This document shows, one piece after another, positions 942-39,717 of a DNA stretch of 64,000 nucleotides. This DNA comes from Candidatus Kapaibacterium sp. Lineage in GTDB: Bacteria; Bacteroidota; Ignavibacteria; Kapaibacteriales; JAEUSM01. The stretch's first letter is position 1. Every line of letters begins with the position of its first letter. Location of the stretch: the NCBI GenBank assembly GCA_016788785.1, contig JAEUSM010000017.1, positions 62,001 to 126,000 on the forward strand, in the 5' to 3' direction. The position numbers were made by a program, and so were the translations under genes. The notes beneath the pieces were generated by a model, which ran no database searches, was not told the DNA's origin, and worked only from the letters and a program-made list of their open reading frames with translations.

Positions 942-1574
942 ATGTCAATATCAAAATTTTTCGCTTTAGCGATTATCGGTTTATTTGTTGTTACTTCATC
1001 AAGTTTTGCTGGTGGTAAAAACTTTTCATTAAACAACAATGTTGGTAAAAATCAAATCAAATTTGACTCTGAAGCACCTGTTGAAACTATTAACGGTGTT
1101 GTGAACACAGTAAATGGAAATTTTACTATGGATATGTCTAACTTCGAAGCTACTACTGGCACTATCACTCTTAACATTGCTGATATGAAAACAGGTGTAG
1201 AAAAAAGAGATGAACACATGCGTGGTGCTGATTGGTTGAACGCTGACAAAAATCCTCAGATTAAATATCAAATCACAAAATTAACTGGTTTGAAAACAAG
1301 TTCTGAAAATGGTAAATTTACTACAAAAGGTACCGTAGAAGGTAATTTTATGTTAAATGGAGTTTCGAAGTATTTAAAAGGTACAGTGAACATCAACTAC
1401 ATTCAAGAGAACGCAGAGACAAAAAAACGTGCGTCTGGCGATATTGTCAATATTCAAGCGAAAATTGATGTTCCTTTGGCTGATTTTGGTATCAAAGGTA
1501 AATCTGGTGTTTTAGGAAATAAAGTTGCGAACGTTGTTAAGATTTCTGCAGTTCTTTTTGCAAATTCCAACTAA
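942..1574 (+). CDS. YceI family periplasmic protein (copy 1 of 3)
   Basis: 210 residues with a signal peptide (hydrophobic stretch 5-21, likely cleavage after S-F-A at 23) followed by a YceI-like lipocalin-type domain. The typical features are the 'R-D-E-H-M-R-G-A-D-W-L' block near residue 90 and a 'G-x-x-x-x-N-G-V-S-K' strand near 135. YceI proteins bind isoprenoid or other amphiphilic molecules in the periplasm; the ligand here is unknown. An AGGAG site lies about 10 bases before the ATG. It follows the outer-membrane barrel closely and is followed by a terminator. It is more divergent than the two other YceI copies in the window (8448-8996 and 38269-38799), which have no signal peptide. 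Confidence 0.85.
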   Translation: MSISKFFALAIIGLFVVTSSSFAGGKNFSLNNNVGKNQIKFDSEAPVETINGVVNTVNGNFTMDMSNFEATTGTITLNIADMKTGVEKRDEHMRGADWLNADKNPQIKYQITKLTGLKTSSENGKFTTKGTVEGNFMLNGVSKYLKGTVNINYIQENAETKKRASGDIVNIQAKIDVPLADFGIKGKSGVLGNKVANVVKISAVLFANSN

Positions 1575-3895: not shown

Positions 3896-4945
3896 TTACG
3901 CAATTGGTAATTTGACGGTGAAGGTTGAGCCTTTTCCAAGCTCAGAATGCACTTCCAAAAGTCCATTGTGTTGTTGGATTATGCGTTGGGTAATAGACAA
4001 CCCCAATCCAGTCCCATCAGCTTTGCGTGTGAAAAATGGATTGAATATTTTCTCCAAATCGTGTTCTGCTATCCCAACTCCCGAATCCGTAACATCTATT
4101 TGAATATACGATCTATTCGGCACATATTCCGTTTTTGCAGTGATAGTGCCTTGTTTTGGAATGGCATCCGTTGCATTTGCAATGAGATTAATCAACACCT
4201 GCTGAATTTGTTTCTCATCGACATTGATATGCGGGATACTCGTTGACAAATCCAAAGAAACATCAATAGATTTTTTGTGAATCAGAGGACCTACAAAGGT
4301 AATAGAATCCGACACAATTTTGTTAATATCGCTGGTGCGTTTTTTCGAAGGAGTTGGTTTGGAAAAGTCCAAAGTCGCCTCCACAATTCTCGCAATTCGC
4401 TCCACTCCCATGAGTGCCGTCGCAAGATGTTCTGACTCAATGGTTTGCTCTGGGAATTTTCGCTTCAGCAACTGCAAATTGAGATTGATTGCAGCCAAAG
4501 GATTACGAATTTCGTGAGCCACACCAGCTGACAACTGACCCAAAATCATCATTTTATCCGCTTGAACTTGCGACTCTTCCAATTTATCTTCGGAAATATC
4601 CCTTGCCACGATTTGCACGGCTGGAACTCCGCAATACGGTGTTTTTTTTGCAGTAATTTCTAACGTTCGGATTACTGGAGTCAATTCACTCCGCATCACC
4701 TCAATCGTCGTTTGGATAGTCGTATGCTCCGATTCACGCAACGAATCGATAATTGGCAGCAGCTCTGGAAGCACCGTTGATTGGAGCAACTCCTTTTTTG
4801 AATTAAGAATTTCGGCAGCACAATCATTAACAATAAGAACTTCCCCTGTGGCTAATTCCAGCACAATCACAGGATAATCGATGGTCTCAAAAAAATGTTT
4901 GTACCATTCGTGGTGCGTTATTATATCCGAAAGCGATTGATTCAT
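3896..4945 (-). CDS. PAS-domain sensor histidine kinase (soluble, NtrB-like)
   Basis: 349 residues. A PAS-like domain fills about 12-120. The HisKA helix has the H box A-H-E-I-R-N-P-L with phosphorylated His144. The ATPase domain shows the N box (N-L-I-A-N-A-T-D-A near 257), G1 box (D-S-G-V-G-I) and G2 box (G-T-G-L-G-L-S). No membrane segment or signal peptide is seen, so it probably senses a cytoplasmic signal or is attached through a partner. No response regulator is adjacent; the nearest receiver protein is 30 kb away. Its 5' end and upstream region are partly duplicated at 11301-11516, next to a repeat (see findings). Confidence 0.9.
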   Translation of the reverse strand: MNQSLSDIITHHEWYKHFFETIDYPVIVLELATGEVLIVNDCAAEILNSKKELLQSTVLPELLPIIDSLRESEHTTIQTTIEVMRSELTPVIRTLEITAKKTPYCGVPAVQIVARDISEDKLEESQVQADKMMILGQLSAGVAHEIRNPLAAINLNLQLLKRKFPEQTIESEHLATALMGVERIARIVEATLDFSKPTPSKKRTSDINKIVSDSITFVGPLIHKKSIDVSLDLSTSIPHINVDEKQIQQVLINLIANATDAIPKQGTITAKTEYVPNRSYIQIDVTDSGVGIAEHDLEKIFNPFFTRKADGTGLGLSITQRIIQQHNGLLEVHSELGKGSTFTVKLPIA

Positions 4946-5022
4946 TGACTATACAACAGTGTACGAATTCATTTCCACCTGCAATATACTCATTTTTACA
5001 AAAAACCGCTATAACAACAGTT
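4811..5022. repeat. Left copy of ~210-bp direct repeat (kinase 5' end plus upstream region)
   Basis: This stretch, the first ~45 codons of the kinase plus its upstream region, matches 11301-11516 at a near-constant offset of 6490-6491 bases. The strongest blocks are 4845-4945 (coding) and 4974-5010 (upstream, containing the hairpin repeat). The left copy has the intact reading frame and a decayed hairpin; the right copy has a decayed frame and an intact hairpin. Together they bracket about 6.3 kb of accessory genes. Confidence 0.8.
4980..5021 (-). repeat. Dispersed hairpin repeat, copy R1 (hairpin degenerate)
   Basis: Shares the core TGCAATATACTCATTTTTAC (4980-4999) and a following A tract and ACCGCT with three other copies at 6381-6436, 10141-10198 and 11471-11520. 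The second hairpin arm is decayed in this copy. It sits directly at the stop codon of the minus-strand anti-sigma gene (5022). Confidence 0.75.
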
Positions 5023-5684
5023 TATTCATATTTATCAAATTGCTCAATTTGATATAAAATTTCTGCAGAATGGAGAATTGGTTGCCATTCTTTTCCACTA
5101 ATTATAAACTGAAACCATTTACTGTTTTGGTTTTCATGTTTAATATTGAAGAATAACCATACTGCTACAAATGTAAAGGATATTGAAATAACAAATTGTA
5201 GTAACAGTAATATCCAATTTTCAACAACAAACATTTTTTCGTTCAAGTAGAAAGTAGTCCATAAGGGAAGTTGTAAAAAAAGTAATCGAGTCACATTTAA
5301 TGTTGAAATTTTTAGTTCAGAGACTTTTTTCTGCATTGTCAGTACTGGTTCACTAAAATCAATTTTGTTAATAAGATGAATTTGATAAATATACACTACA
5401 ATTGCTACCGCGGTAAGTAAAACTTGTGTAAAAGCTGAAAATAGAAAAAATATACTAACTTTTTCAAAATGAAATACTGTTAATATTGCGAGAAAACTAC
5501 CAAGTCCTATTACCCAAATAAGACCTATAATAAGTGTAAATGCTTTAATAGGTTTCATTGATGAAAGTAAATTTTGAACTTTTAGTTTTGTTATATCTTC
5601 TGTATTTATTTTATTCTCACGAAGGACAACTTCTAATTTTTCATTAGACTTTTGCCAAAGCTGTTTTATATCATTTTCATTCAT
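5022..5684 (-). CDS. Putative anti-sigma factor, multi-pass membrane protein
   Basis: 220 residues with a cytoplasmic N-terminus of about 45 residues (charged, helical), followed by about four membrane segments (roughly 46-70, 77-100, 130-150, 155-178) and a short soluble tail. It starts 4 bases after the ECF sigma gene stop, so the two are translationally linked. The arrangement of a sigma gene followed by a membrane protein with a cytosolic N-terminal helix is the standard ECF sigma/anti-sigma pair; no known anti-sigma sequence motif (such as the zinc H-x3-C-x2-C) is visible. Function is inferred from context. Confidence 0.55.
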   Translation of the reverse strand: MNENDIKQLWQKSNEKLEVVLRENKINTEDITKLKVQNLLSSMKPIKAFTLIIGLIWVIGLGSFLAILTVFHFEKVSIFFLFSAFTQVLLTAVAIVVYIYQIHLINKIDFSEPVLTMQKKVSELKISTLNVTRLLFLQLPLWTTFYLNEKMFVVENWILLLLQFVISISFTFVAVWLFFNIKHENQNSKWFQFIISGKEWQPILHSAEILYQIEQFDKYE

Positions 5685-5688
5685 TGTT

Positions 5689-6198
5689 TTATAAATGTAG
5701 TTTTAAAAATTTAGATTTAAGTTTCTCTTTTATACGTCCTAATTTTGTCCCAACATTCGTTATAGATATTGCCATAATCTCAGCAATTTCAGCGTAGCTT
5801 TTTTCCTCTAAGTACAGTAGGATTAGAGCTTTGTCAATATGGTTGAGTTCGGAGATAAACATATCCAATAGTGATAACATTTCTTGTTTTTCATTGCTTT
5901 CTTCTACATACATTATCTCGAGTTCTTCTGGTAAAGGAATAGTATTTTTTTTACGATGTTCATTTTTTCTATAAAATGAAATAGCAACATTCAATGAAAT
6001 ACGAAACAACCATGTTGAAAGAGCAAAAGAATTGTTGTAAGTATGTAACGACTTCCAAATCTGTATCATTATCTCTTGTACTAAGTCTTGTCTGTCATCA
6101 TCATTTTGGCAATAGGTTCTTGCTACTTTGTACAAAATACCTTTGTGTTGCTCAATAATCTGTTCAAACTTCTTTCGCAATTCATCATCATTTATCAT
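5689..6198 (-). CDS. ECF-type RNA polymerase sigma factor
   Basis: 169 residues. Region 2 covers about 15-80, with the core D-D-R-Q-D-L-V-Q-E-I and S-T-W-L-F-R-I-S-L-N-V-A. Region 4 covers about 110-165, with Y-L-E-E-K-S-Y-A-E-I-A-E-I-M-A-I-S-x-x-N-V-G-T-K-L-G-R, a normal ECF helix-turn-helix. The length is usual for the family. It is the first gene of a two-gene unit with the putative anti-sigma factor. Targets are unknown; ECF promoters often resemble their own, but no duplicated motif was recognised upstream. Confidence 0.9.
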   Translation of the reverse strand: MINDDELRKKFEQIIEQHKGILYKVARTYCQNDDDRQDLVQEIMIQIWKSLHTYNNSFALSTWLFRISLNVAISFYRKNEHRKKNTIPLPEELEIMYVEESNEKQEMLSLLDMFISELNHIDKALILLYLEEKSYAEIAEIMAISITNVGTKLGRIKEKLKSKFLKLHL

Positions 6199-6529
6199 AG
6201 AATCGGTTACCCAGTTTTTTTAGTACTCTTTAAACATTTCGTTTTTATAACATACCTATTTTGAAAGCCTTTTGATAGGTTTGGATTTTTATAAAACAAA
6301 AGGAATAACAATATTTACTTTATTATTCGAAATGATTCTAAAAAAATCACAGTTTTTAGAAAAATCAGCAAGTATTTTTCTTGTAATATACTCATTTTTA
6401 CAAAAAAACCTCTGCAAATGCGGTTTTGGTGGGGGACGATTTAGAATGTATGTTTGGAAATCGGTGTTGAAGGAAATTTCAACACAAATTTCTATGACAA
6501 TAAGTTTATAGGATACAATTCTGGAGAAG
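6199..6529. other. 331-bp gap between ECF sigma gene and small membrane gene; contains repeat R2
   Basis: Very AT-rich. It contains repeat copy R2 (6381-6436). An open frame on the plus strand (6272-6511) runs straight through the repeat and has no recognisable protein features, so I do not call it. The sigma-gene promoter should lie in the right half of 6199-6260, but no clear TAnnTTTG box was found. Confidence 0.5.
6381..6436 (-). repeat. Dispersed hairpin repeat, copy R2
   Basis: Core TAATATACTCATTTTTAC followed by an A tract, an imperfect hairpin (AACC...GGTT with mismatches) and the shared flank GGTTTTGGTGGGG. It lies about 95 bases downstream of the minus-strand gene at 6530-6727. It is more diverged in the hairpin than R3 and R4, but the right-hand flank is identical to R3. 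Confidence 0.75.
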
Positions 6530-6727
6530 TTAGCTTTGTGTATTATGCTGTTGTTGCACTTTCAATTTCTTGTATATGTAGCTTCCTAAAATTCCAGCAA
6601 CTACACCTGCAATTCCACCGATAATTTCTGTTGGAGCGTCATAGCCTGAAAGTTTCACGACCACAACAAACAAAATTGCTACTGGCACTGAAACTAATAC
6701 ACTTGTTAAAATTGGATGTTTCTTCAT
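6530..6727 (-). CDS. Small two-helix membrane protein, unknown function
   Basis: 65 residues: a short basic start, a hydrophobic helix (about 8-27), a Gly/Ala-rich second helix (about 36-54) and a basic, Gln-rich end. Its ATG overlaps the stop of the acetyltransferase gene (ATGA), which supports it being a real, translationally coupled gene. The family is not recognised. Confidence 0.55.
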   Translation of the reverse strand: MKKHPILTSVLVSVPVAILFVVVVKLSGYDAPTEIIGGIAGVVAGILGSYIYKKLKVQQQHNTQS

Positions 6728-7242
6728 TTGTTAGTTGTTAATTTCCACCAAATCATTTCTTCATTGGTATTTGATTGTGTAAAGTTGTTATTAATTAGGA
6801 CTTTTTGCGAAGCAATATTATTTATTTCTGTTTCAGCAATAAGTGCATTTATTTCTAGGTTGTTTTCTGCCCACAGTACTAATCCACCAACTGCTTCTGT
6901 CATATAACCTTTTCCAAAAAAAGTTGGTTCTGTTCCGTAACCTATCTCAATTTCCCCATTTTCATTCGGTATGCCTTTGAAAATGAAGCTTCCAACGATT
7001 GCATTTTGTATTTTGTCAATGATTATCCACGTTGAAATATAATGAGCTAGATGTAAATTTTCTTTGAGATTTGGCAAAATTATGTGCTCGATTACTTCTT
7101 TTAATGGTTCTGATATCGTTCTTTTAATCAAGTTGACGCCTAACTTTCTCTCTAAAGAAAAATCACAAGCAAGACAATCTACTTGTTGATCATAAGATAA
7201 CGGAAAAATTGTAAGTCGTTTTGTTTCAATTCGGATATTCAT
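6724..7242 (-). CDS. GNAT family N-acetyltransferase (RimJ/RimL-like)
   Basis: 172 residues from the ATG at 7242. An earlier in-frame GTG at 7287 would add 15 residues that do not fit the family, whose members begin with the 'R-I-E-T-K-R-L-T-I-F-P-L' strand. The acetyl-CoA loop region is I-E-I-G-Y-G-T-E-P-T-F-F-G-K-G-Y-M-T-E-A, followed by the A-E-T-E-I-N-N-I-A-S-Q-K-V-L block with the usual Asn and Ser. The substrate cannot be predicted. It lies in the accessory region and is coupled to a small membrane protein gene. Confidence 0.8.
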   Translation of the reverse strand: MNIRIETKRLTIFPLSYDQQVDCLACDFSLERKLGVNLIKRTISEPLKEVIEHIILPNLKENLHLAHYISTWIIIDKIQNAIVGSFIFKGIPNENGEIEIGYGTEPTFFGKGYMTEAVGGLVLWAENNLEINALIAETEINNIASQKVLINNNFTQSNTNEEMIWWKLTTNK

Positions 7243-7620
7243 AATTACTAATTTCCGTTCAGAAAAAAAATTGCTCCTTATTAGCACTGGTTGTTAATAG
7301 TTTCTTTTCCAATTTTTTGGAGTCTCCTTAAGGGAAAGAATTTTTAAAATCTCAATTTTTTTACTCATTTTTTTTGTAAAATTACAAAAGTCAAACTTTA
7401 GAACAATACGACATTCATAATTTAAACAAAATCCTTTGTAAAATACAGACAAAATTGATGATGATAATTTAGAAATGCACGATATGCTTTCATGATGTTA
7501 CTTTACCAGAAGTGTCCAATGTTGTAATGAGAATATCACCTCACCAGTATTTTATTCAATAATTATTGGTGAGGTATATATCTATTTTCAATATTTGATG
7601 AAAAGATAGTATCTCTGTTG
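7243..7620. other. Intergenic stretch with a 12-bp-stem hairpin
   Basis: About 380 AT-rich bases without a gene. The only clear structure is the inverted repeat at 7538-7575. A short T-rich part near 7340-7390 has a weak resemblance to the dispersed repeat core ('TACTCATTTTT'), but it is too short and low-complexity to be called a copy. Confidence 0.5.
7538..7575. repeat. Inverted repeat downstream of the SDR gene
   Basis: ACCTCACCA (7538-7546) pairs perfectly with TGGTGAGGT (7567-7575), and the stem extends by about three more pairs. There is no T tract on either side. It lies 46 bases after the SDR stop on the minus strand, so it may stabilise or end that transcript, or be a protein-binding site. 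Confidence 0.5.
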
Positions 7621-8451
7621 CTAAAATACTACACTTTCAGCTATATCCTTGTAAGCGTTAATGTCATTTTGAACGCTTTCCAATTTTGTGGTTAATGAAA
7701 CAATTGCAATTTTTCCTAGTGGCAGTCTCAATGGTGGTTTGTCAAGTTTGGAGATGTCAACAATGGCATGAGAAGCTTTGTATGGGTCGCCTTCTTGTTT
7801 GCCGTCAACATGTTGCATTCTTTCTCTAAAGGCTCCGGCGGTTTCATTATAATCTTCAATAATTTTTTCTGCTTGTCTGAATGCACTACCAGCAAAATTA
7901 GTTCTAAATGGACCAGGTTCTACAATGGTTAAATGAATGCCCAAAGGTGCAACTTCAATAGCCAATGCTTCGCTAAAACCTTCTACTGCAAATTTACTCG
8001 CATTGTAAATTCCAAAACCTGGAAATGCTTTAAATCCACCATGAGAGGAAATTTGAATAATATGTCCACTTCTTTGTTTCCTAAAAAATGGCAAAAAAGA
8101 TTGTGTCAAATTCAAAGTACCAAAAAAGTTTGCTTCAAAAATTTCTCTTGTTTCTTCTATGCTTGTTTCTTCAATAGCACCTGCAAAACCAAAACCCGCA
8201 TTGTTTACTAACACATCTATACTACCAAACTTTTCTTTAACAAGTTTTACAGCTATCTCAATTTCGTTTGATTTTGCTATGTCTAAAGTTAATGCAAATG
8301 CTTTGTCTTTGTATTGATTGTTAAAAATGTCTGCTTGTTCTTGGCTGCGAAATGTACCAATAACAAAATCGCCATATTCAATTACAGTTTGGGCAAGTGC
8401 CTTGCCCAAACCGCTTGAAATTCCTGTAATAAACCAAGTTCTATTTTTCAT
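7621..8451 (-). CDS. Short-chain dehydrogenase/reductase (classical SDR)
   Basis: 276 residues. The cofactor motif is T-G-I-S-S-G-L-G (9-16), with N-N-A-G at 83-86 and the active-site triad Ser135/136, Tyr149 and Lys153 (Y-N-A-S-K). Arg35 after the second strand suggests NADPH preference. The substrate is unknown. Its ATG overlaps the YceI stop (ATGA), so both are made from one mRNA. The pair lies beside an AraC-type regulator in the accessory region. Confidence 0.9.
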   Translation of the reverse strand: MKNRTWFITGISSGLGKALAQTVIEYGDFVIGTFRSQEQADIFNNQYKDKAFALTLDIAKSNEIEIAVKLVKEKFGSIDVLVNNAGFGFAGAIEETSIEETREIFEANFFGTLNLTQSFLPFFRKQRSGHIIQISSHGGFKAFPGFGIYNASKFAVEGFSEALAIEVAPLGIHLTIVEPGPFRTNFAGSAFRQAEKIIEDYNETAGAFRERMQHVDGKQEGDPYKASHAIVDISKLDKPPLRLPLGKIAIVSLTTKLESVQNDINAYKDIAESVVF

Positions 8452-8996
8452 AGTTGCACAGTTTTTAACAGTTGAACAGGAATATTAATTTTCACTTTGT
8501 TAGAAACAGCCAAGTTTCCTGTACCTAACATTACATTAAATGAAAGACCAAAATCCTGACGGTTTATAATTCCTGTAAGAAAGAAACCTGCTTTGGTATT
8601 GCCAAATGGGTCTTGTGGAACTGTTCCTGCATATTCCAAATCAAAAATAACAGGCTTTGTTATACCTCGAATTGTTAAATTTCCGTGCATTTTGTACTCA
8701 TTGTCAGTATCTGTTGATTCTAGCTTCGTACTTTCAAAATTCATTTCTTGAAACTTTTCAACATTAAAAAAGTCGTCTGCCTTTAAGTGTGCATCTCGTT
8801 GAGCATCATTGGTGTCAATACTATCAGTTTGTACAGTCACGTTTACTTGTAAATCAGAAAAATCTTCTTTTTCAGTTTTTACCGTTCCATTGTAGTTTTT
8901 AAAAAATCCGTCAACTTCAGATATTCCAAAGTGTCTTACACTAAATCCTACTTTGGTGTGGCTTGGGTCTAAGACCCATTTAGCTAATTCTTGCAT
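8448..8996 (-). CDS. YceI family protein (copy 2 of 3), cytoplasmic form
   Basis: 182 residues from the ATG at 8996. An upstream start at 9050 would add a hydrophobic leader that overlaps the promoter and operator described below, so it is not chosen. The protein starts directly with W-V-L-D-P-S-H-T-K-V-G-F-S-V-R-H, the typical YceI opening, and contains the D-A-Q-R-D-A-H-L-K-A-D-D-F-F block. No signal peptide, unlike copy 1. It is closest in layout to copy 3 at 38269-38799. Ligand and role are unknown; genetic coupling to an SDR suggests a hydrophobic or quinone-like substrate (inference). Confidence 0.85.
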   Translation of the reverse strand: MQELAKWVLDPSHTKVGFSVRHFGISEVDGFFKNYNGTVKTEKEDFSDLQVNVTVQTDSIDTNDAQRDAHLKADDFFNVEKFQEMNFESTKLESTDTDNEYKMHGNLTIRGITKPVIFDLEYAGTVPQDPFGNTKAGFFLTGIINRQDFGLSFNVMLGTGNLAVSNKVKINIPVQLLKTVQL

Positions 8997-9018
8997 AGTA
9001 CTAATTATTAAAATTATT

Positions 9019-9044
9019 TTGTCAAAATTGACAATGCAAAAATA
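9019..9044 (-). promoter_or_regulatory. Promoter -7 element and perfect palindromic operator of yceI-SDR
   Basis: On the minus strand TATTTTTG (9044 to 9037) fits TAnnTTTG. Directly after it, at the expected transcription start, lies the perfect inverted repeat TTGTCAA-AA-TTGACAA (9019-9034). The ATG at 8996 follows with a 35-base leader. This is the classic place for a repressor operator. Confidence 0.55.
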
Positions 9045-9065
9045 AGGCAAAGTAAAGCTATGTTG

Positions 9066-9962
9066 TTAAGATGAAACCTGCTTTTTTCGGTATTTTTCGG
9101 ACATTTCAGTTTTAAATGCCAAAGGAGATAGTTTTGTTTCTTTTTTAAAGGCTTTAGCGAAGTAAGAACTATCAGTATAGTTAAGTTCGAAAGCAATTTC
9201 GGAAACCGTTTTGTCTGTGAATGTTAAAAACCGTTTTGCTTCTAAAATACTTCGAGCTCTTATTACTGCACTAGCTGTTTTTCCTGTCACTTCTTTGGTA
9301 ATTAGATTTAAATGATGTTCAGTAATATGAAGTTGTTCAGCAAAATATGAAGTTGTTTTGTTTTCGACAAAATGCTTGTCTATTAGGTTTTTGAATTGTT
9401 TGAATATTATTAAATACTTCTTTGAAAGTATTTTGTCTGTTTTTGTGTCAATGCAACGTTGAACTTGAGTCAATAAAATATGAAGTAAAGATTGTGTAAT
9501 AGTTTGATTTCTGTCAGTTCGTTTGTGTTCATTAGAAATTAAGTCAATGGTTTGCTTAATTTCGGCAAAATTTCTTTTGTCTAATTGAATACAAGGGTTT
9601 GCAAAGAAGTTATCCAAAAAACTTAGTTCAAAAAGTTTGTCTTTCTTATAATAATTTAGCAAATAGAAGTCTTCCGTAAAAAGAATTGTTCCTCCTTTTA
9701 GTGGTTTCCACTCTTCAAATTGATGAACTTGGTTGGGCGAAATAAAAAACAAACTATTTGGCAAAACTTCATATTCTTTATAATCAATGGTTTGCTTGCT
9801 TATGCCTTTTTCTGTCCAAAGTATTTCATAAAAAGTATGTTTGTGAATTTCTTCCACTTCAGGTTCTTCCATTTCTTCAAACCTCATAATCTCAAATTCG
9901 GTTCGATTTGTCGGCTTGTTTATAAAGTGTCCGATACTATAAAATGGAAATAAATTTTTCAT
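9066..9962 (-). CDS. AraC family transcriptional regulator
   Basis: 298 residues. The N-terminal half (about 20-110) is a cupin-like sensor domain with 'H-K-H-T-F-Y-E-I-L-W' and 'F-F-I-S-P-N-Q-V-H'. The C-terminal ~100 residues have the two AraC helix-turn-helix units, ending with the family signature S-E-I-A-F-E-L-N-Y-T-D-S-S-Y-F-A-K-A-F-K-K. It lies directly upstream of, and in the same direction as, the YceI-SDR pair, which is its likely target. The ligand is unknown. Confidence 0.9.
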   Translation of the reverse strand: MKNLFPFYSIGHFINKPTNRTEFEIMRFEEMEEPEVEEIHKHTFYEILWTEKGISKQTIDYKEYEVLPNSLFFISPNQVHQFEEWKPLKGGTILFTEDFYLLNYYKKDKLFELSFLDNFFANPCIQLDKRNFAEIKQTIDLISNEHKRTDRNQTITQSLLHILLTQVQRCIDTKTDKILSKKYLIIFKQFKNLIDKHFVENKTTSYFAEQLHITEHHLNLITKEVTGKTASAVIRARSILEAKRFLTFTDKTVSEIAFELNYTDSSYFAKAFKKETKLSPLAFKTEMSEKYRKKQVSS

Positions 9963-10410
9963 TAGTCAAAAGTATTTGTTTTAAGTTTATTTATGTTAGA
10001 ACTATTAATTGTAATATTGCTTCTAAAAGTTGCGATTTGAGAAGATTCTAGTAGAAAGTAGCAAAGTTATTGAATAGCAACTTTTTAATGAGGCGATTTT
10101 TAGCAATTTCTCTTTTTCCATCATTCAAATCTTCTCTTCCAACCGCAATTTACTCATTTTTACAAAAAAACCGCTTTTAAAGCGGTTTTGGTGGGGATGT
10201 TTATATTGTCTAACTTAGACAAGGTTGTTGAATGTAATTTCATCAAAAATGTCTATGGTAAGTAATATATATGATTAAATCATGTTGTAACAATATTAGA
10301 GATAGGAATGTACTGGGCATAATTTCAATTTAGTTCTGTTCATTAAGCACGAATTGTTCCTCTTTCTTTTTCTTAATTCTTGTATATTCTGTTTAGTAAT
10401 CTGGCCAAAT
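9963..10410. other. 448-bp gap with repeat R3
   Basis: Contains repeat copy R3 (10141-10198) and a small palindrome GTCTAA-C-TTAGAC (10208-10220). No open frame with protein-like features is seen. A TACTTTTG (minus strand, 9974-9967) next to the AraC start resembles a -7 element, but would leave almost no leader. Confidence 0.5.
10141..10198 (-). repeat. Dispersed hairpin repeat, copy R3 (perfect hairpin)
   Basis: Core CAATTTACTCATTTTTAC, A tract, then the perfect hairpin AACCGCTTT-T-AAAGCGGTT (10169-10187) and GGTTTTGGTGGGG. Read on the minus strand it ends in a T tract, as a rho-independent terminator would. It also shares the block CTTCTCTTCC just to its left with R4, so the repeated unit is longer than the hairpin. 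Confidence 0.8.
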
Positions 10411-11235
10411 TTATGCAAATCTTTCTTGAAGCCACGTTTTGGCTATGTTTTCAAACTTTTTTCTAGGCATATTCAACAGTTCTTTAACACTTAACATCCT
10501 GTCTATTGCTACTGATTCAACTAACATTAATCCAACATAATATCCGGCTCTATATTCTTTAATATCTGAGGGATCTTTTGCATAAAATAATCCTATTTTT
10601 GAATTACTTGAAGAAAAAGTTTTCAAAACAAATTTATACAACATTTGTTCTTTATGTTTGCATTCTTGAAGCCAGATTATTATATCATTTTTTGAAATAA
10701 AATCTGCCCATAAAGCCGTGCCTTCATCTACATTTAGAATTTTCATGGTTAAATATGTAGCCACTCCTTCCGTAATAACTTGTCTAATTACCGACCGTTT
10801 CTCTGCAACATTTGTGAAATAAAAATCTGGTGAATTAGCATAATGAAAAGCATGAATAATTTCATGCGTGATAAAAATTTCCGCTTGAGTTTTTGTTACG
10901 TAGCCCTCTAAAGGTAACCAAACTATAAATTTTCCCTTGTCTTTGAAGGCGTGACCATTAGATGTGGCATTACCAACAAAAAGAACAACTTCCGTGTTTT
11001 CCATCTCGAATCCAAATGAAACTAACCGTTGTTCTACTTGCTTTATTCCATCTATGATAAGGTTTTTTCTCTTTATTAATTCTGTTTGTAAGAGACAATT
11101 TGAAAAATTTTTTCTTGTTGCCCAATATTTAAAATAATGAGAAAATAGAGCAGGATATGATTGCTCATAAGCTCGTAGATCTTTTGCTTTTAATATTTCA
11201 GAAGTATAGGAATCAGTGAGATCTATTATGTTCAT
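10411..11235 (-). CDS. Putative zinc metallopeptidase (HExxH + E, gluzincin-like)
   Basis: 274 residues, no signal peptide or membrane segment. It has His124-Glu125-x-x-His128 in a helix (F-I-T-H-E-I-I-H-A-F-H-Y) and a second helix 28 residues later with Glu156 (I-T-E-G-V-A-T-Y-L), a good third zinc ligand. This spacing fits gluzincin-type peptidases and resembles the 'predicted Zn-dependent protease' groups such as DUF2268. I cannot assign an exact family or substrate. It probably acts in the cytoplasm. It stands alone between repeats R3 and R4 in the accessory region. Confidence 0.6.
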   Translation of the reverse strand: MNIIDLTDSYTSEILKAKDLRAYEQSYPALFSHYFKYWATRKNFSNCLLQTELIKRKNLIIDGIKQVEQRLVSFGFEMENTEVVLFVGNATSNGHAFKDKGKFIVWLPLEGYVTKTQAEIFITHEIIHAFHYANSPDFYFTNVAEKRSVIRQVITEGVATYLTMKILNVDEGTALWADFISKNDIIIWLQECKHKEQMLYKFVLKTFSSSNSKIGLFYAKDPSDIKEYRAGYYVGLMLVESVAIDRMLSVKELLNMPRKKFENIAKTWLQERFA

Positions 11236-11300
11236 AAATTTTTGCCATTTCTCATTCGGGTTTTTGGCTTGGTGAAGTCAGGTTTCAAGGCAAAAAACTT

Positions 11301-11435
11301 TTAACGGCTTCTATCATCCACAATAAGCTCTAAACCTGTGGCTAATTCCAGCACAAAAACAGGATAATCGATTATCTCAATAAAGTGTTTGTACCATTCG
11401 AGATAGGCCATTCTATCAGAAAGAGATTGATTCTT
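11301..11435 (-). pseudogene. Decayed 5' fragment of a PAS histidine kinase
   Basis: Read on the minus strand, this stretch gives ~44 codons that align without gaps to residues 1-44 of the kinase at 3896-4945 with 29 identities (shared blocks N-Q-S-L-S-D, E-W-Y-K-H-F, I-D-Y-P-V, V-L-E-L-A-T-G, L-I-V). The start codon is lost (AAG at 11435-11433), and the frame ends in TAA at 11303-11301. It is thus a remnant, either of a duplicated kinase or of the same gene from another strain. Confidence 0.8.
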
Positions 11436-11516
11436 TGACTACTTCACTTACTCTCTTCTTCTCTTCCACCTGCAATATACTCATTTTTACAAAAAAACCG
11501 CTGTAAAAGCGGTTTT
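11301..11516. repeat. Right copy of ~210-bp direct repeat
   Basis: Partner of 4811-5022 at an offset of 6490-6491 bases. It includes the kinase remnant and repeat R4. Similarity falls off to the left of about 11301. Confidence 0.8.
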
Positions 11517-11520
11517 GGGG
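11471..11520 (-). terminator. Dispersed hairpin repeat, copy R4, acting as terminator of the quinone reductase gene
   Basis: Core TGCAATATACTCATTTTTAC (identical to R1), A tract, hairpin AACCGCT-GTAA-AGCGGTT (11497-11514). On the minus strand the hairpin is followed by seven T residues, 19 bases after the stop of the gene at 11534-12112. This copy therefore looks like a working terminator and is a candidate for the original one. Confidence 0.75.
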
Positions 11521-11533
11521 ATATTTGACATTG

Positions 11534-12112
11534 TTATTTGTTTTGGATTCCGAGTTGTTCAATTTTTGAGAGCCATTTTGTTCGGTAAAGTTCTTTGGAA
11601 AGCCGGATTGGTCCGATGGTCGTTACCCTCACTGGCGACATTCCACAAAATTCAAGCGTCAGTTTTTTCATTGCGTTGTTGCTTGGTTGTCGATAGACTA
11701 ACCAATAATACCATGCAGGTTGATCAAGCGTGGAAATGATTCTTGCTGATTTGTTGGTGAGTAATTTGTCCCACCAAACGGAATTTTCCCTTTTTTTGAA
11801 CGCAAATCCAGGAAGAAACACTCGGTCGATAAATCCTTTCATTATGGCTGGAATTGAACCCCACCAAACTGGATAGATCCACACGAGATGTTCCGCCCAC
11901 GTAATTAGTTCTTGTGCTTTGAGAAGATCTGGTTCCAATTCCGTTCGTTTTCGATACCCAAATTGTAAATTGGGATTAAACGCCAAATCACGGATATTGA
12001 CTTGTCTCACCTCAGCTCCAGATGCAATAGCTCCTTTTTTGTACGCTTCAACAATTGCAACACTAAAACTTTCTGGATCAGGATGACCATTTATAATGAG
12101 TATTTTTTTCAT
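11534..12112 (-). CDS. NAD(P)H-dependent quinone reductase-like flavoprotein (flavodoxin_2 fold)
   Basis: 192 residues. The N-terminus I-L-I-I-N-G-H-P-D-P-E-S-F is the FMN/FAD phosphate loop of the KefF/MdaB/NQO1 family. The central block W-I-Y-P-V-W-W-G-S-I-P-A-I-M-K-G-F-I-D-R-V-F-L-P-G-F-A-F is the family hallmark for the isoalloxazine pocket. It probably reduces quinones or related compounds by two electrons in the cytoplasm. Followed by terminator R4; preceded by an outer-membrane protein gene 18 bases away on the same strand. Confidence 0.85.
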   Translation of the reverse strand: MKKILIINGHPDPESFSVAIVEAYKKGAIASGAEVRQVNIRDLAFNPNLQFGYRKRTELEPDLLKAQELITWAEHLVWIYPVWWGSIPAIMKGFIDRVFLPGFAFKKRENSVWWDKLLTNKSARIISTLDQPAWYYWLVYRQPSNNAMKKLTLEFCGMSPVRVTTIGPIRLSKELYRTKWLSKIEQLGIQNK

Positions 12113-37396: not shown

Positions 37397-38236
37397 ATGC
37401 ATAGGAAATCGTTTATTCTAACAGGTTTTGCAGCGATACTTACTTCTAACAGTTTGTATGCTAATGTAAAATCGTATTTATCCTCAAAATTTGCGAAAAA
37501 AACAATGGAAACTACTGCAAACAGTGCAAATGTGATTTTGCACAAAGCTTCTACAAGAGGTCATGCGAATCATGGCTGGTTGGACTCTTATCATACCTTT
37601 AGTTTTGCCAATTACTATGATGAGTCACGTGTTCATTTTGGTGCTTTACGAGTTCTCAATGATGATAAAATTGACGGTGGCACTGGTTTTTCCAAACACC
37701 CACACTCAAATATGGAAATAATTTCCATTCCTATTTATGGTGCATTAGAACACAAAGATAGCATGGGCAATACAACAGTTATCCAAACTAATGACATTCA
37801 AATTATGTCTGCCGGAACTGGTGTTACACACTCTGAATACAATCATTTGAAAGATGCTGTTTCGAATTTTTTACAGATCTGGGTATTTCCAGCTGAAAAA
37901 AATATCGCTCCAAATTACGACCAAATGACGTTAAATCCAGCAGACCGCTATGGGAAATTAGTTCCTATAGTTTCGCCAGCAGGTGAGCCGGGAGTTACTA
38001 TCAACCAAAATGCTTGGTTTCATAGAGGAACTTTAGTAAAAGACAGCATTACCAATTACAAACTACATTCTCCTAATAATGGTGTCTATGCTTTTATTAT
38101 CAATGGAGATGTTACTATCAATGACCAACCATTAGAACGTCGTGATGGTGCTGGTTTTACAAATACTCAAGAATTACAAATAAACGCCATTTCTGAAGCA
38201 GATGTACTGCTTATTGAAGTGCCAATGCTACAATAA
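37397..38236 (+). CDS. Pirin family protein with N-terminal leader (quercetinase-type)
   Basis: 279 residues. The double cupin with all four metal ligands is seen: His101 and His103 (K-H-P-H-S-N-M-E), His145 and Glu147 (G-V-T-H-S-E). The C-terminal half matches the YhhW-type shorter cupin. The first ~36 residues form a hydrophobic leader (F-I-L-T-G-F-A-A-I-L...L-Y-A), which looks like a signal peptide; pirins are normally cytoplasmic. An internal ATG at codon 37 would give a normal-length protein, so either the protein is exported or the true start is 37505. Pirins of this type can oxidise flavonols or act in redox control. Confidence 0.85.
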   Translation: MHRKSFILTGFAAILTSNSLYANVKSYLSSKFAKKTMETTANSANVILHKASTRGHANHGWLDSYHTFSFANYYDESRVHFGALRVLNDDKIDGGTGFSKHPHSNMEIISIPIYGALEHKDSMGNTTVIQTNDIQIMSAGTGVTHSEYNHLKDAVSNFLQIWVFPAEKNIAPNYDQMTLNPADRYGKLVPIVSPAGEPGVTINQNAWFHRGTLVKDSITNYKLHSPNNGVYAFIINGDVTINDQPLERRDGAGFTNTQELQINAISEADVLLIEVPMLQ

Positions 38237-38268: not shown

Positions 38269-38799
38269 ATGTCAACTACATGGAAAATTGATCAATCACA
38301 TTCTGATGTGAACTTTAAAGTTAAACACTTAATGATTTCAACTGTCACAGGAAAATTTGAATCCTATGATGGAACTGTTGAACAACCAAACCCAGATTCA
38401 TTCGAAGGATCTGCAATTTCTTTTACTGCAGATGTAAAAAGCATTTCTACCGGTGTTGCAGATCGTGACAATCACCTTCGTTCCAATGATTTCTTTAATG
38501 CGGATGAATTTCCAACGATGAAATTTGAAGCTTCTTCGTTTGAGAAAACTTCTGATGACGAATATCAATTGAATGGTCATCTTACTATTCGCGACAATAC
38601 AAAACCGGTTTCATTGCGTGCGACATTCAATGGTATTACTTCCGATATGTGGGGAGGAACTCGTGCTGGATTTGAAATAACTGGTACTATCAAAAGAAAA
38701 GAATTTGGCTTACTTTGGAACGCTACTACCGAGTTAGGTGGAGTCGTAGTAAGTGATGATGTAAAGTTAGCATTAGACGTACAACTTGTAAAACAATAA
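38269..38799 (+). CDS. YceI family protein (copy 3 of 3)
   Basis: 176 residues with no signal peptide. Opens T-W-K-I-D-Q-S-H-S-D-V-N-F-K-V-K-H and has D-R-D-N-H-L-R-S-N-D-F-F-N-A-D-E-F-P; this is the cytoplasmic YceI form that often accompanies MarR regulators and pirins. A good ribosome site (AAAGGA) lies 9 bases upstream. Probably binds a hydrophobic or isoprenoid molecule. Between the two pirin genes. Confidence 0.9.
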   Translation: MSTTWKIDQSHSDVNFKVKHLMISTVTGKFESYDGTVEQPNPDSFEGSAISFTADVKSISTGVADRDNHLRSNDFFNADEFPTMKFEASSFEKTSDDEYQLNGHLTIRDNTKPVSLRATFNGITSDMWGGTRAGFEITGTIKRKEFGLLWNATTELGGVVVSDDVKLALDVQLVKQ

Positions 38800-38865: not shown

Positions 38866-39717
38866 ATGGAAACATCCATTATTATTGCATCTCCATTGCA
38901 TCAACAATTAGGTCCTAACCTTGTTATCAATGCACCGATTCCAACACGGCAAATACCAAATGTTGATCCTTTTTTACTTTTACACCATTTTGGACCAATT
39001 GAAGTAAGTTCAAAACACGATTTTTTAGTTCCACCCCATCCTCACAAGGGATTCGAAGCTATAACATTTCTTTTCAGTGGTTCCGTTGAGCATAAAGATT
39101 CATTAGGAAATTCCGGCATTCTTCATTCTGGTGATATTCAATGGATGACAGCCGGTAATGGTATCGAACACCAAGAAGGATATCCTTATGATGACAAAAC
39201 GCAAACGTTGGAAGGAATCCAATTATGGGTAAATTTACCTGCGAGTTCTAAACGTGAAGCACCTCGTTATCAGGATATTCAATCAAAAGACATTCCTGAA
39301 GTAATAGAAGGTACTTCTGTCATTCGTGTTTTTGCAGGTACTTTTGATGGTAAAACTGCTCCAACAAAAACAGTTACTGATTTGACTGCACTGTATGGTA
39401 AAACAGAGAAAGGATATAAACGCGTTTTTGACATTCCCATGGGATATAATGCTATTTTGTATACATTACATGGTAATATTGAAGTACATTCTGGTGGAGA
39501 CTTTGTTGCTTCTGAAGGTTCCGCAATTGTAATAAACAATAGTAGCCAACCAATTGAGATAAAAACAACGGTTGATTCTCAATTTGTTTTGCTTTATGGA
39601 AAACCAATCAACGAACCCATTGCTACTTATGGTCCCTTCGTTATGAATTATCACGAAGAAATCAATGTAGCCATCCGAGAATACCGTTCAGGTGCATGGG
39701 GAAGCGTTGCTCAATAA
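38866..39717 (+). CDS. Pirin family protein (second copy)
   Basis: 283 residues. The N-terminal cupin holds H-P-H-K-G-F-E and later I-E-H-Q-E, giving the His/His/His/Glu metal set; the C-terminal cupin has the Pirin_C pattern ending in 'G-P-F-V-M-N'. No leader, unlike the first pirin. It is of the classic longer type, related to human pirin, while the first is YhhW-like, so this is not a recent duplication. Last gene of the MarR unit; 9 bases from convergent pepF. Confidence 0.88.
   Translation: METSIIIASPLHQQLGPNLVINAPIPTRQIPNVDPFLLLHHFGPIEVSSKHDFLVPPHPHKGFEAITFLFSGSVEHKDSLGNSGILHSGDIQWMTAGNGIEHQEGYPYDDKTQTLEGIQLWVNLPASSKREAPRYQDIQSKDIPEVIEGTSVIRVFAGTFDGKTAPTKTVTDLTALYGKTEKGYKRVFDIPMGYNAILYTLHGNIEVHSGGDFVASEGSAIVINNSSQPIEIKTTVDSQFVLLYGKPINEPIATYGPFVMNYHEEINVAIREYRSGAWGSVAQ

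What the first reader, a model, noticed from the sequence alone, without database searches (positions are those of the whole stretch)
4811..11516. A ~6.3-kb accessory region bracketed by a direct repeat containing the 5' end of a kinase gene
The first ~45 codons of the histidine kinase (3896-4945), plus upstream bases, occur again at 11301-11516 at a near-constant offset of 6490-6491. The second copy aligns to kinase residues 1-44 with 29 identities, but has lost its start (AAG) and has an early TAA. In the left copy the frame is intact and the repeat hairpin is decayed; in the right copy the reverse holds. Between them lie genes of a looser, accessory kind. This pattern fits an island that entered at, or was duplicated around, the 5' end of the kinase gene. 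Seen: the repeat and decay. Inferred: the insertion history.
Basis: partly seen in the sequence, partly recalled or inferred. Interest (0 to 1): 0.65.

Follow-up and report, generated by a model that had tools for sequence, protein, structure and literature searches.

The report
Three-module foreign island at kinase gene
Between a quinone-reductase gene and a sensor-kinase gene of a Bacteroidota-lineage bacterium sit three batches of foreign genes, each bounded by a copy of the same terminator-plus-promoter-like DNA, so the site was probably entered several times; this resembles known composite genomic islands, but the repeated unit is unusual and no enzyme that could have inserted it was found.

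Summary
The repeat is real: 4823-5023 matches 11313-11515 (79.6% over 206 columns, E 4e-43; the 129-nt core 106/129), and the second copy carries kinase codons 1-44 (29/44 residues), start ATG changed to AAG, TAA at codon 45. The terminator plus a 25-nt block (TTTTTTGTAAAAATGAGTAWATTRC, minus strand) occurs four times: 4981, 6383, 10145 and 11472. All copies point the same way, and none lies elsewhere in the 2.97-Mb genome. They cut the region into three modules: A (DUF2268 metallopeptidase), B (AraC, YceI, SDR, GNAT, small membrane protein) and C (ECF sigma factor plus membrane partner). G+C is 30.8% against 36.2% (sd 0.8) outside. AraC-YceI of B is 74% identical DNA in a genome of another class; the sigma/partner pair of C is an operon in four other-class genomes; order-level relatives lack close matches. 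Best reading: a composite island built by successive insertions at the terminator-promoter just upstream of the kinase, each leaving a repeat, as in tandem-accreted integrase-less islands. Foreign origin and stepwise build-up are well supported. Site-specific recombination is inferred: no integrase lies inside, and no close relative with an empty site is held.

The parts
3896..4945 (-). PAS/HisKA/HATPase sensor histidine kinase, intact (target gene)
   Evidence: Pfam PF00512, PF02518; 35-48% identical homologues in order-level relatives
4811..5030 (-). repeat copy 4: weakened hairpin, 25-nt block (4981-5005), leader and kinase codons 1-44
5022..5684 (-). module C: membrane protein, presumed anti-sigma factor; its stop codon abuts the hairpin
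   Evidence: no Pfam/NCBIfam match; operon with the sigma factor in four other-class genomes, 49-54% aa
5689..6198 (-). module C: ECF-type sigma-70 factor
   Evidence: PF04542, PF08281; TIGR02937
6330..6514 (-). repeat copy 3: shared tail (6430-6514), decayed hairpin, 25-nt block (6383-6407)
6530..6727 (-). module B: small membrane protein, 65 aa
   Evidence: ORF list; no family match
6724..7287 (-). module B: GNAT acetyltransferase
   Evidence: PF13302
7621..8451 (-). module B: short-chain dehydrogenase/reductase
   Evidence: PF00106; NF004824 above cut-off; 68% identical on Haliscomenobacter plasmid pHALHY03
8448..9050 (-). module B: YceI-family protein
   Evidence: PF04264; 80-82% identical in other-class genome G052
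9066..9962 (-). module B: AraC-family regulator
   Evidence: PF12833; 75% identical in G052, 66.6% on pHALHY03
10107..10275 (-). repeat copy 2: shared tail, strong hairpin, 25-nt block (10145-10169)
10411..11235 (-). module A: DUF2268-like zinc metallopeptidase
   Evidence: PF10026 E 3.6e-6; one 26% match among 346 genomes of the phylum besides its own
11301..11524 (-). repeat copy 1: terminator of the quinone reductase, 25-nt block (11472-11496), decayed leader and kinase codons 1-44 (start AAG, TAA at codon 45)
11534..12112 (-). flavodoxin-fold NAD(P)H dehydrogenase (quinone reductase), presumed ancestral upstream neighbour
   Evidence: PF02525; G+C 40%, host-like

Best explanation
The ancestral order, in the direction of transcription, was quinone reductase - terminator - promoter-like block - kinase. 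Foreign gene modules then entered at the terminator/promoter block in at least two, probably three, steps. Each insertion left a further copy of the block, so the modules now lie head to tail in one orientation: copy1-A-copy2-B-copy3-C-copy4-kinase. One event also duplicated (or brought in) the leader and first 44 codons of the kinase. The copy joined to the kinase body kept its function; the copy left behind the quinone reductase kept only its terminator and decayed as coding sequence. The most likely process is site-specific accretion with the block as attachment site, with the recombinase supplied in trans or since lost, as in cis-mobilizable elements; recombination on shared sequence is the close second. 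Shown: four repeats, modular gene content, foreign relatives, composition, decay. Inferred: order of events, recombinase, promoter function.
For: Four same-strand copies of the 25-nt block, with none elsewhere in the genome at up to 3 mismatches and 0 expected by chance in the window; the perfect hairpin occurs only at two of these sites genome-wide. Across the four copies 23 of 26 block columns are invariant, against 10 of 25 in the hairpin before it and 2 of 25 after it. Island G+C 30.8% vs 36.2 +- 0.8% in equal windows. Module B: AraC-YceI 74% DNA identity over 1.5 kb, in the same gene order, in other-class genome G052; AraC and SDR relatives lie close together on plasmid pHALHY03. Module C: sigma/partner operon in four other-class genomes, while the only order-level match of the partner is 25%. 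Module A: one 26% match in 346 genomes besides its own. The modules therefore have different relatives. At kinase residues 19, 36, 40, 43 and 44 the left copy, not the right, carries the residue common in relatives, so the right copy is the one that drifted (residue 27 goes the other way).
Against: No integrase lies in the region. The genome has only two tyrosine recombinases above the Pfam cut-off, both far away. The block lacks good inverted arms in three of four copies; the 6.4-kb copy has 12-bp arms (10/12) around 7 bp, but 2-4% of 40-mers score as well. The shared stretches have different lengths at each junction (about 50, 80, 130 and 200 nt), which suits loose duplication as well as a fixed attachment site. 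No empty site or excised circle was seen.
Confidence: 0.6

Rival explanations
1. Each insertion was an illegitimate or homology-assisted recombination event (for example during natural transformation) that duplicated 50-200 bp of target. A entered first and duplicated terminator-block-kinase 5' end; C later duplicated terminator-block; B duplicated A's tail plus terminator-block.
For: It reproduces all four junctions, including the roughly 85-nt tail shared only by copies 2 and 3. It needs no integrase, and none is present.
Against: Three independent duplications at one 50-nt spot call for a reason to choose that spot. The strict invariance of the 25-nt block compared with its flanks is not explained unless the block is also under selection.
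Confidence: 0.3
2. The block is a conserved promoter (a small regulon, possibly served by module C's sigma factor), kept alike by selection, and not a trace of insertion.
For: It follows a terminator and lies 36 nt before the kinase start; the block is far more conserved than its flanks; module C encodes an ECF sigma factor.
Against: The terminator hairpin, the leader, the kinase codons and the shared tail are repeated too, which a regulon does not require. In three copies the next gene starts about 180-240 nt away. There is no fifth copy at any unlinked gene. The sigma-70 scan found nothing in the block.
Confidence: 0.07
3. Integron-like or Xer/dif module array.
For: Head-to-tail modules with a repeat at each boundary, all in one orientation.
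Against: No canonical attC ends (GTTRRRY) were seen on inspection. Both tyrosine recombinases score far below the XerD cut-off; integron integrase was not searched specifically. The block matches the genome's best dif-like site at 12 of 21 positions at most, which 19% of random stretches equal.
Confidence: 0.03

Closest known systems
Tandem-accreted islands and cis-mobilizable elements (CIMEs) of streptococci (reviewed in PMC5704250)
   Same: Integrase-less modules bounded by repeated attachment sites, piled up at one target gene
   Different: The repeat here holds a terminator, a promoter-like block and the 5' end of a kinase gene; no related complete element is known to go with it
ssrA-specific genomic islands of Dehalococcoides (PMC3146451)
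   Same: Several tandem islands downstream of one gene, separated by a short direct repeat of that gene; many lack the integration genes
   Different: There the site is in tmRNA and about half of the islands (16 of 31) keep an integration module with a serine recombinase; none is present here
dusA-specific integrative elements such as IMEVchUSA3 (PMC8409611)
   Same: Insertion in the 5' end of a protein gene, with the element supplying a divergent but working promoter and N-terminus
   Different: Those elements carry an integrase; here the linked kinase end looks ancestral and the unlinked copy is the decayed one

Membership tests
Tandem-accreted island / CIME | Modules bounded by same-orientation repeats that include part of the target gene | tested here: met
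   Four same-strand copies; copies 1 and 4 include the kinase 5' end
Tandem-accreted island / CIME | Foreign, unrelated cargo in each module | tested here: met
Tandem-accreted island / CIME | Integration genes absent from the CIME itself | tested here: met
   No recombinase family among the module proteins; tyrosine recombinases only elsewhere
Tandem-accreted island / CIME | Descent from, or mobilization by, an ICE/IME using the same attachment site | not testable with these tools
   No same-family genome held; no repeat in the other 122 order genomes; full block absent from viral contigs
Integron cassette array | IntI integrase and attC sites | tested here: inconclusive
   Two distant tyrosine recombinases only, not classified as IntI; attC judged by eye, no covariance search for attC
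XerCD/dif-flanked module | 28-bp dif-like sites at the module ends | tested here: not met
   Match to the genome's dif-like site is no better than random
Transposon insertion | Transposase, or short fixed-length target duplication with terminal inverted repeats | tested here: not met
   No transposase domain in the modules; repeats are 50-200 nt and of unequal length

The most novel reading that the evidence does not exclude
The terminator plus 25-nt block is the attachment site of an undescribed site-specific element family that inserts at a terminator-promoter junction upstream of a protein gene, so that each acquired module arrives insulated by a terminator and followed by a promoter for the next unit.
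Probability: 0.15. Interest if true: 0.65.

Novelty: new variant of a known kind. Interest (0 to 1): 0.4.

Why it matters
It gives a compact, decay-marked record of repeated gene acquisition at one chromosomal site without a visible recombinase, and a defined 25-nt block to search for in related genomes. If the block is an attachment site, it would be a terminator-promoter target, which imposes little cost on the host because the flanking genes keep a terminator and a promoter. If not, it is a clear case of how repeated unassisted insertions build an island.

Tried and rejected
One-island reading: rejected, because two further repeat copies split the region. Chance similarity: rejected. A repeat family dispersed over the genome: rejected. 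tRNA or known RNA as target: none found. Prophage cargo: no PHROGs match for the four module proteins tested, no relatives of modules A or C in viral contigs. A single viral contig with a 19-nt match to the block lacks the hairpin and the rest, judged chance. Synteny with order-level relatives: the kinase is present but not its window neighbours, so no empty-site test. A database scan for the kinase in named genomes returned only distant kinases, 40% or less.

Full report
OBSERVATION. Comparing the window with itself gives one strong long direct repeat, 4823-5023 against 11313-11515, 79.6% over 206 columns, E 4.5e-43. Its ungapped 129-nt part is identical at 106 positions, and no other 129-mer in the window reaches 62. 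In the kinase frame the second copy shares 29 of 44 residues, has AAG for ATG and a TAA at codon 45. One correction concerns the hairpins: the left one is weakened but still folds with G-U pairs (-7.7 kcal/mol), the right one is strong (-10.6), the 10-kb one is strong (-11.6) and the 6.4-kb one is decayed (-4.8).

FOUR COPIES, NOT TWO. The terminator hairpin and the 25 bases that follow it on the minus strand (TTTTTTGTAAAAATGAGTAWATTRC) occur at 4981-5005, 6383-6407, 10145-10169 and 11472-11496, all on the minus strand. The genome of 2.97 Mb holds no fifth copy at up to three mismatches. The perfect hairpin alone is found only at the 10-kb and 11.5-kb sites. Over the four aligned copies 23 of 26 block columns are invariant, 10 of 25 before and 2 of 25 after. 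Beyond the block the sharing is unequal. Copies 1 and 4 share the kinase leader and 44 codons. Copies 1 and 2 share about 80 nt (86%). Copies 2 and 3 share about 130 nt (76%), including an 85-nt tail before the hairpin. A genome search with the copy-2 tail found no convincing match outside this locus (best E 0.02).

THREE MODULES. In the direction of transcription the order is: quinone reductase, copy 1, module A (DUF2268 metallopeptidase), copy 2, module B (AraC regulator, YceI, short-chain dehydrogenase, GNAT, 65-aa membrane protein), copy 3, module C (ECF sigma factor and a membrane protein, presumably its anti-sigma), copy 4, kinase. G+C of 5022-11300 is 30.8%, against 36.2% (sd 0.8) for equal windows outside; the kinase (41.9%) and quinone reductase (40.2%) are on the host side of that difference.

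ORIGINS. Relatives of its AraC (66.6%) and dehydrogenase (68.1%) lie close together on Haliscomenobacter plasmid pHALHY03. For module C, the sigma/partner pair is an adjacent pair in four other-class genomes (sigma 56-64%, partner 49-54%), while the only match of the partner in its own order is 25%. For module A, among 346 genomes of the phylum only one besides its own has a match, at 26%. Three modules, three different distributions: they were probably acquired separately.

POLARITY OF DECAY. At kinase residues 19, 36, 40, 43 and 44 the left copy, not the right, has the residue common in relatives; residue 27 goes the other way. So the right copy is the one that lost constraint as coding sequence, though it kept the terminator of the quinone reductase. 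The left copy kept the coding function while its hairpin weakened. This division fits duplication of an ancestral quinone reductase-terminator-block-kinase arrangement (inference). The right copy's frame stays open to codon 45 and has an internal ATG giving 36 aa, so residual function cannot be excluded.

MECHANISM. Two models reproduce all junctions. (1) Accretion: the block is an attachment site, each module enters at it and leaves a copy, with the recombinase acting in trans or lost. (2) Successive illegitimate or homology-assisted insertions, each duplicating 50-200 nt of target. For (1) speak the single orientation, the single location and the invariance of the block. Against it speak the missing integrase (only two tyrosine recombinases above cut-off in the genome, both distant), poor inverted arms in three of four copies, and only a suggestive 10/12 arm pair in copy 3 (chance 2-4% per 40-mer). 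I favour (1) slightly, and I hold the stepwise-insertion statement common to both with more confidence than either mechanism. That the block is also a promoter is inferred from its place after a terminator and 36 nt before the kinase start; the sigma-70 scan gave no support.

COMPARISON. Tandem accretion leaving integrase-less elements bounded by attachment sites is described for streptococcal ICE/IME relatives (PMC5704250). A row of islands separated by repeats of one gene is known at ssrA of Dehalococcoides (PMC3146451). Insertion at the 5' end of a protein gene with a supplied promoter and N-terminus is known for dusA elements (PMC8409611). The present case works like these but is not shown to be a member of any of them: no integrase and no parent element were found. 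The dif comparison was no better than random; transposition is not supported.

LIMITS. No genome of the same family is held, none of the other 122 genomes of the order carries the repeat, and order-level relatives of the kinase do not have the same neighbours. The empty site, the decisive test, therefore remains untested.

Noticed in passing
window 6464-6485 and 10230-10260: The tail shared by copies 2 and 3 contains a second hairpin, perfect (8 bp, GTGTTGAA/TTCAACAC) in copy 3 and imperfect in copy 2; function unknown.
   Followed up: partly
own genome, G000 C6:120451-120903, C17:215119-215583 and C6:339116-339136: Only two tyrosine recombinases were found and both score far below the XerD cut-off, yet a near-perfect dif-like site exists; the chromosome-dimer recombinase may be unusual or was missed by the search.
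   Followed up: partly
window 942-1574, 8448-9050 and 38269-38799: Three YceI-like genes in one window (the first and third by sequence appearance only); the one at 38269-38799 lies between two pirin-like genes by sequence appearance (37397-38236, 38866-39717).
   Followed up: no
window 11301-11411, minus strand: The decayed kinase copy keeps an open frame with an internal ATG (36 aa, MAYLEWYKHF...), a possible small peptide of PAS-like sequence.
   Followed up: no
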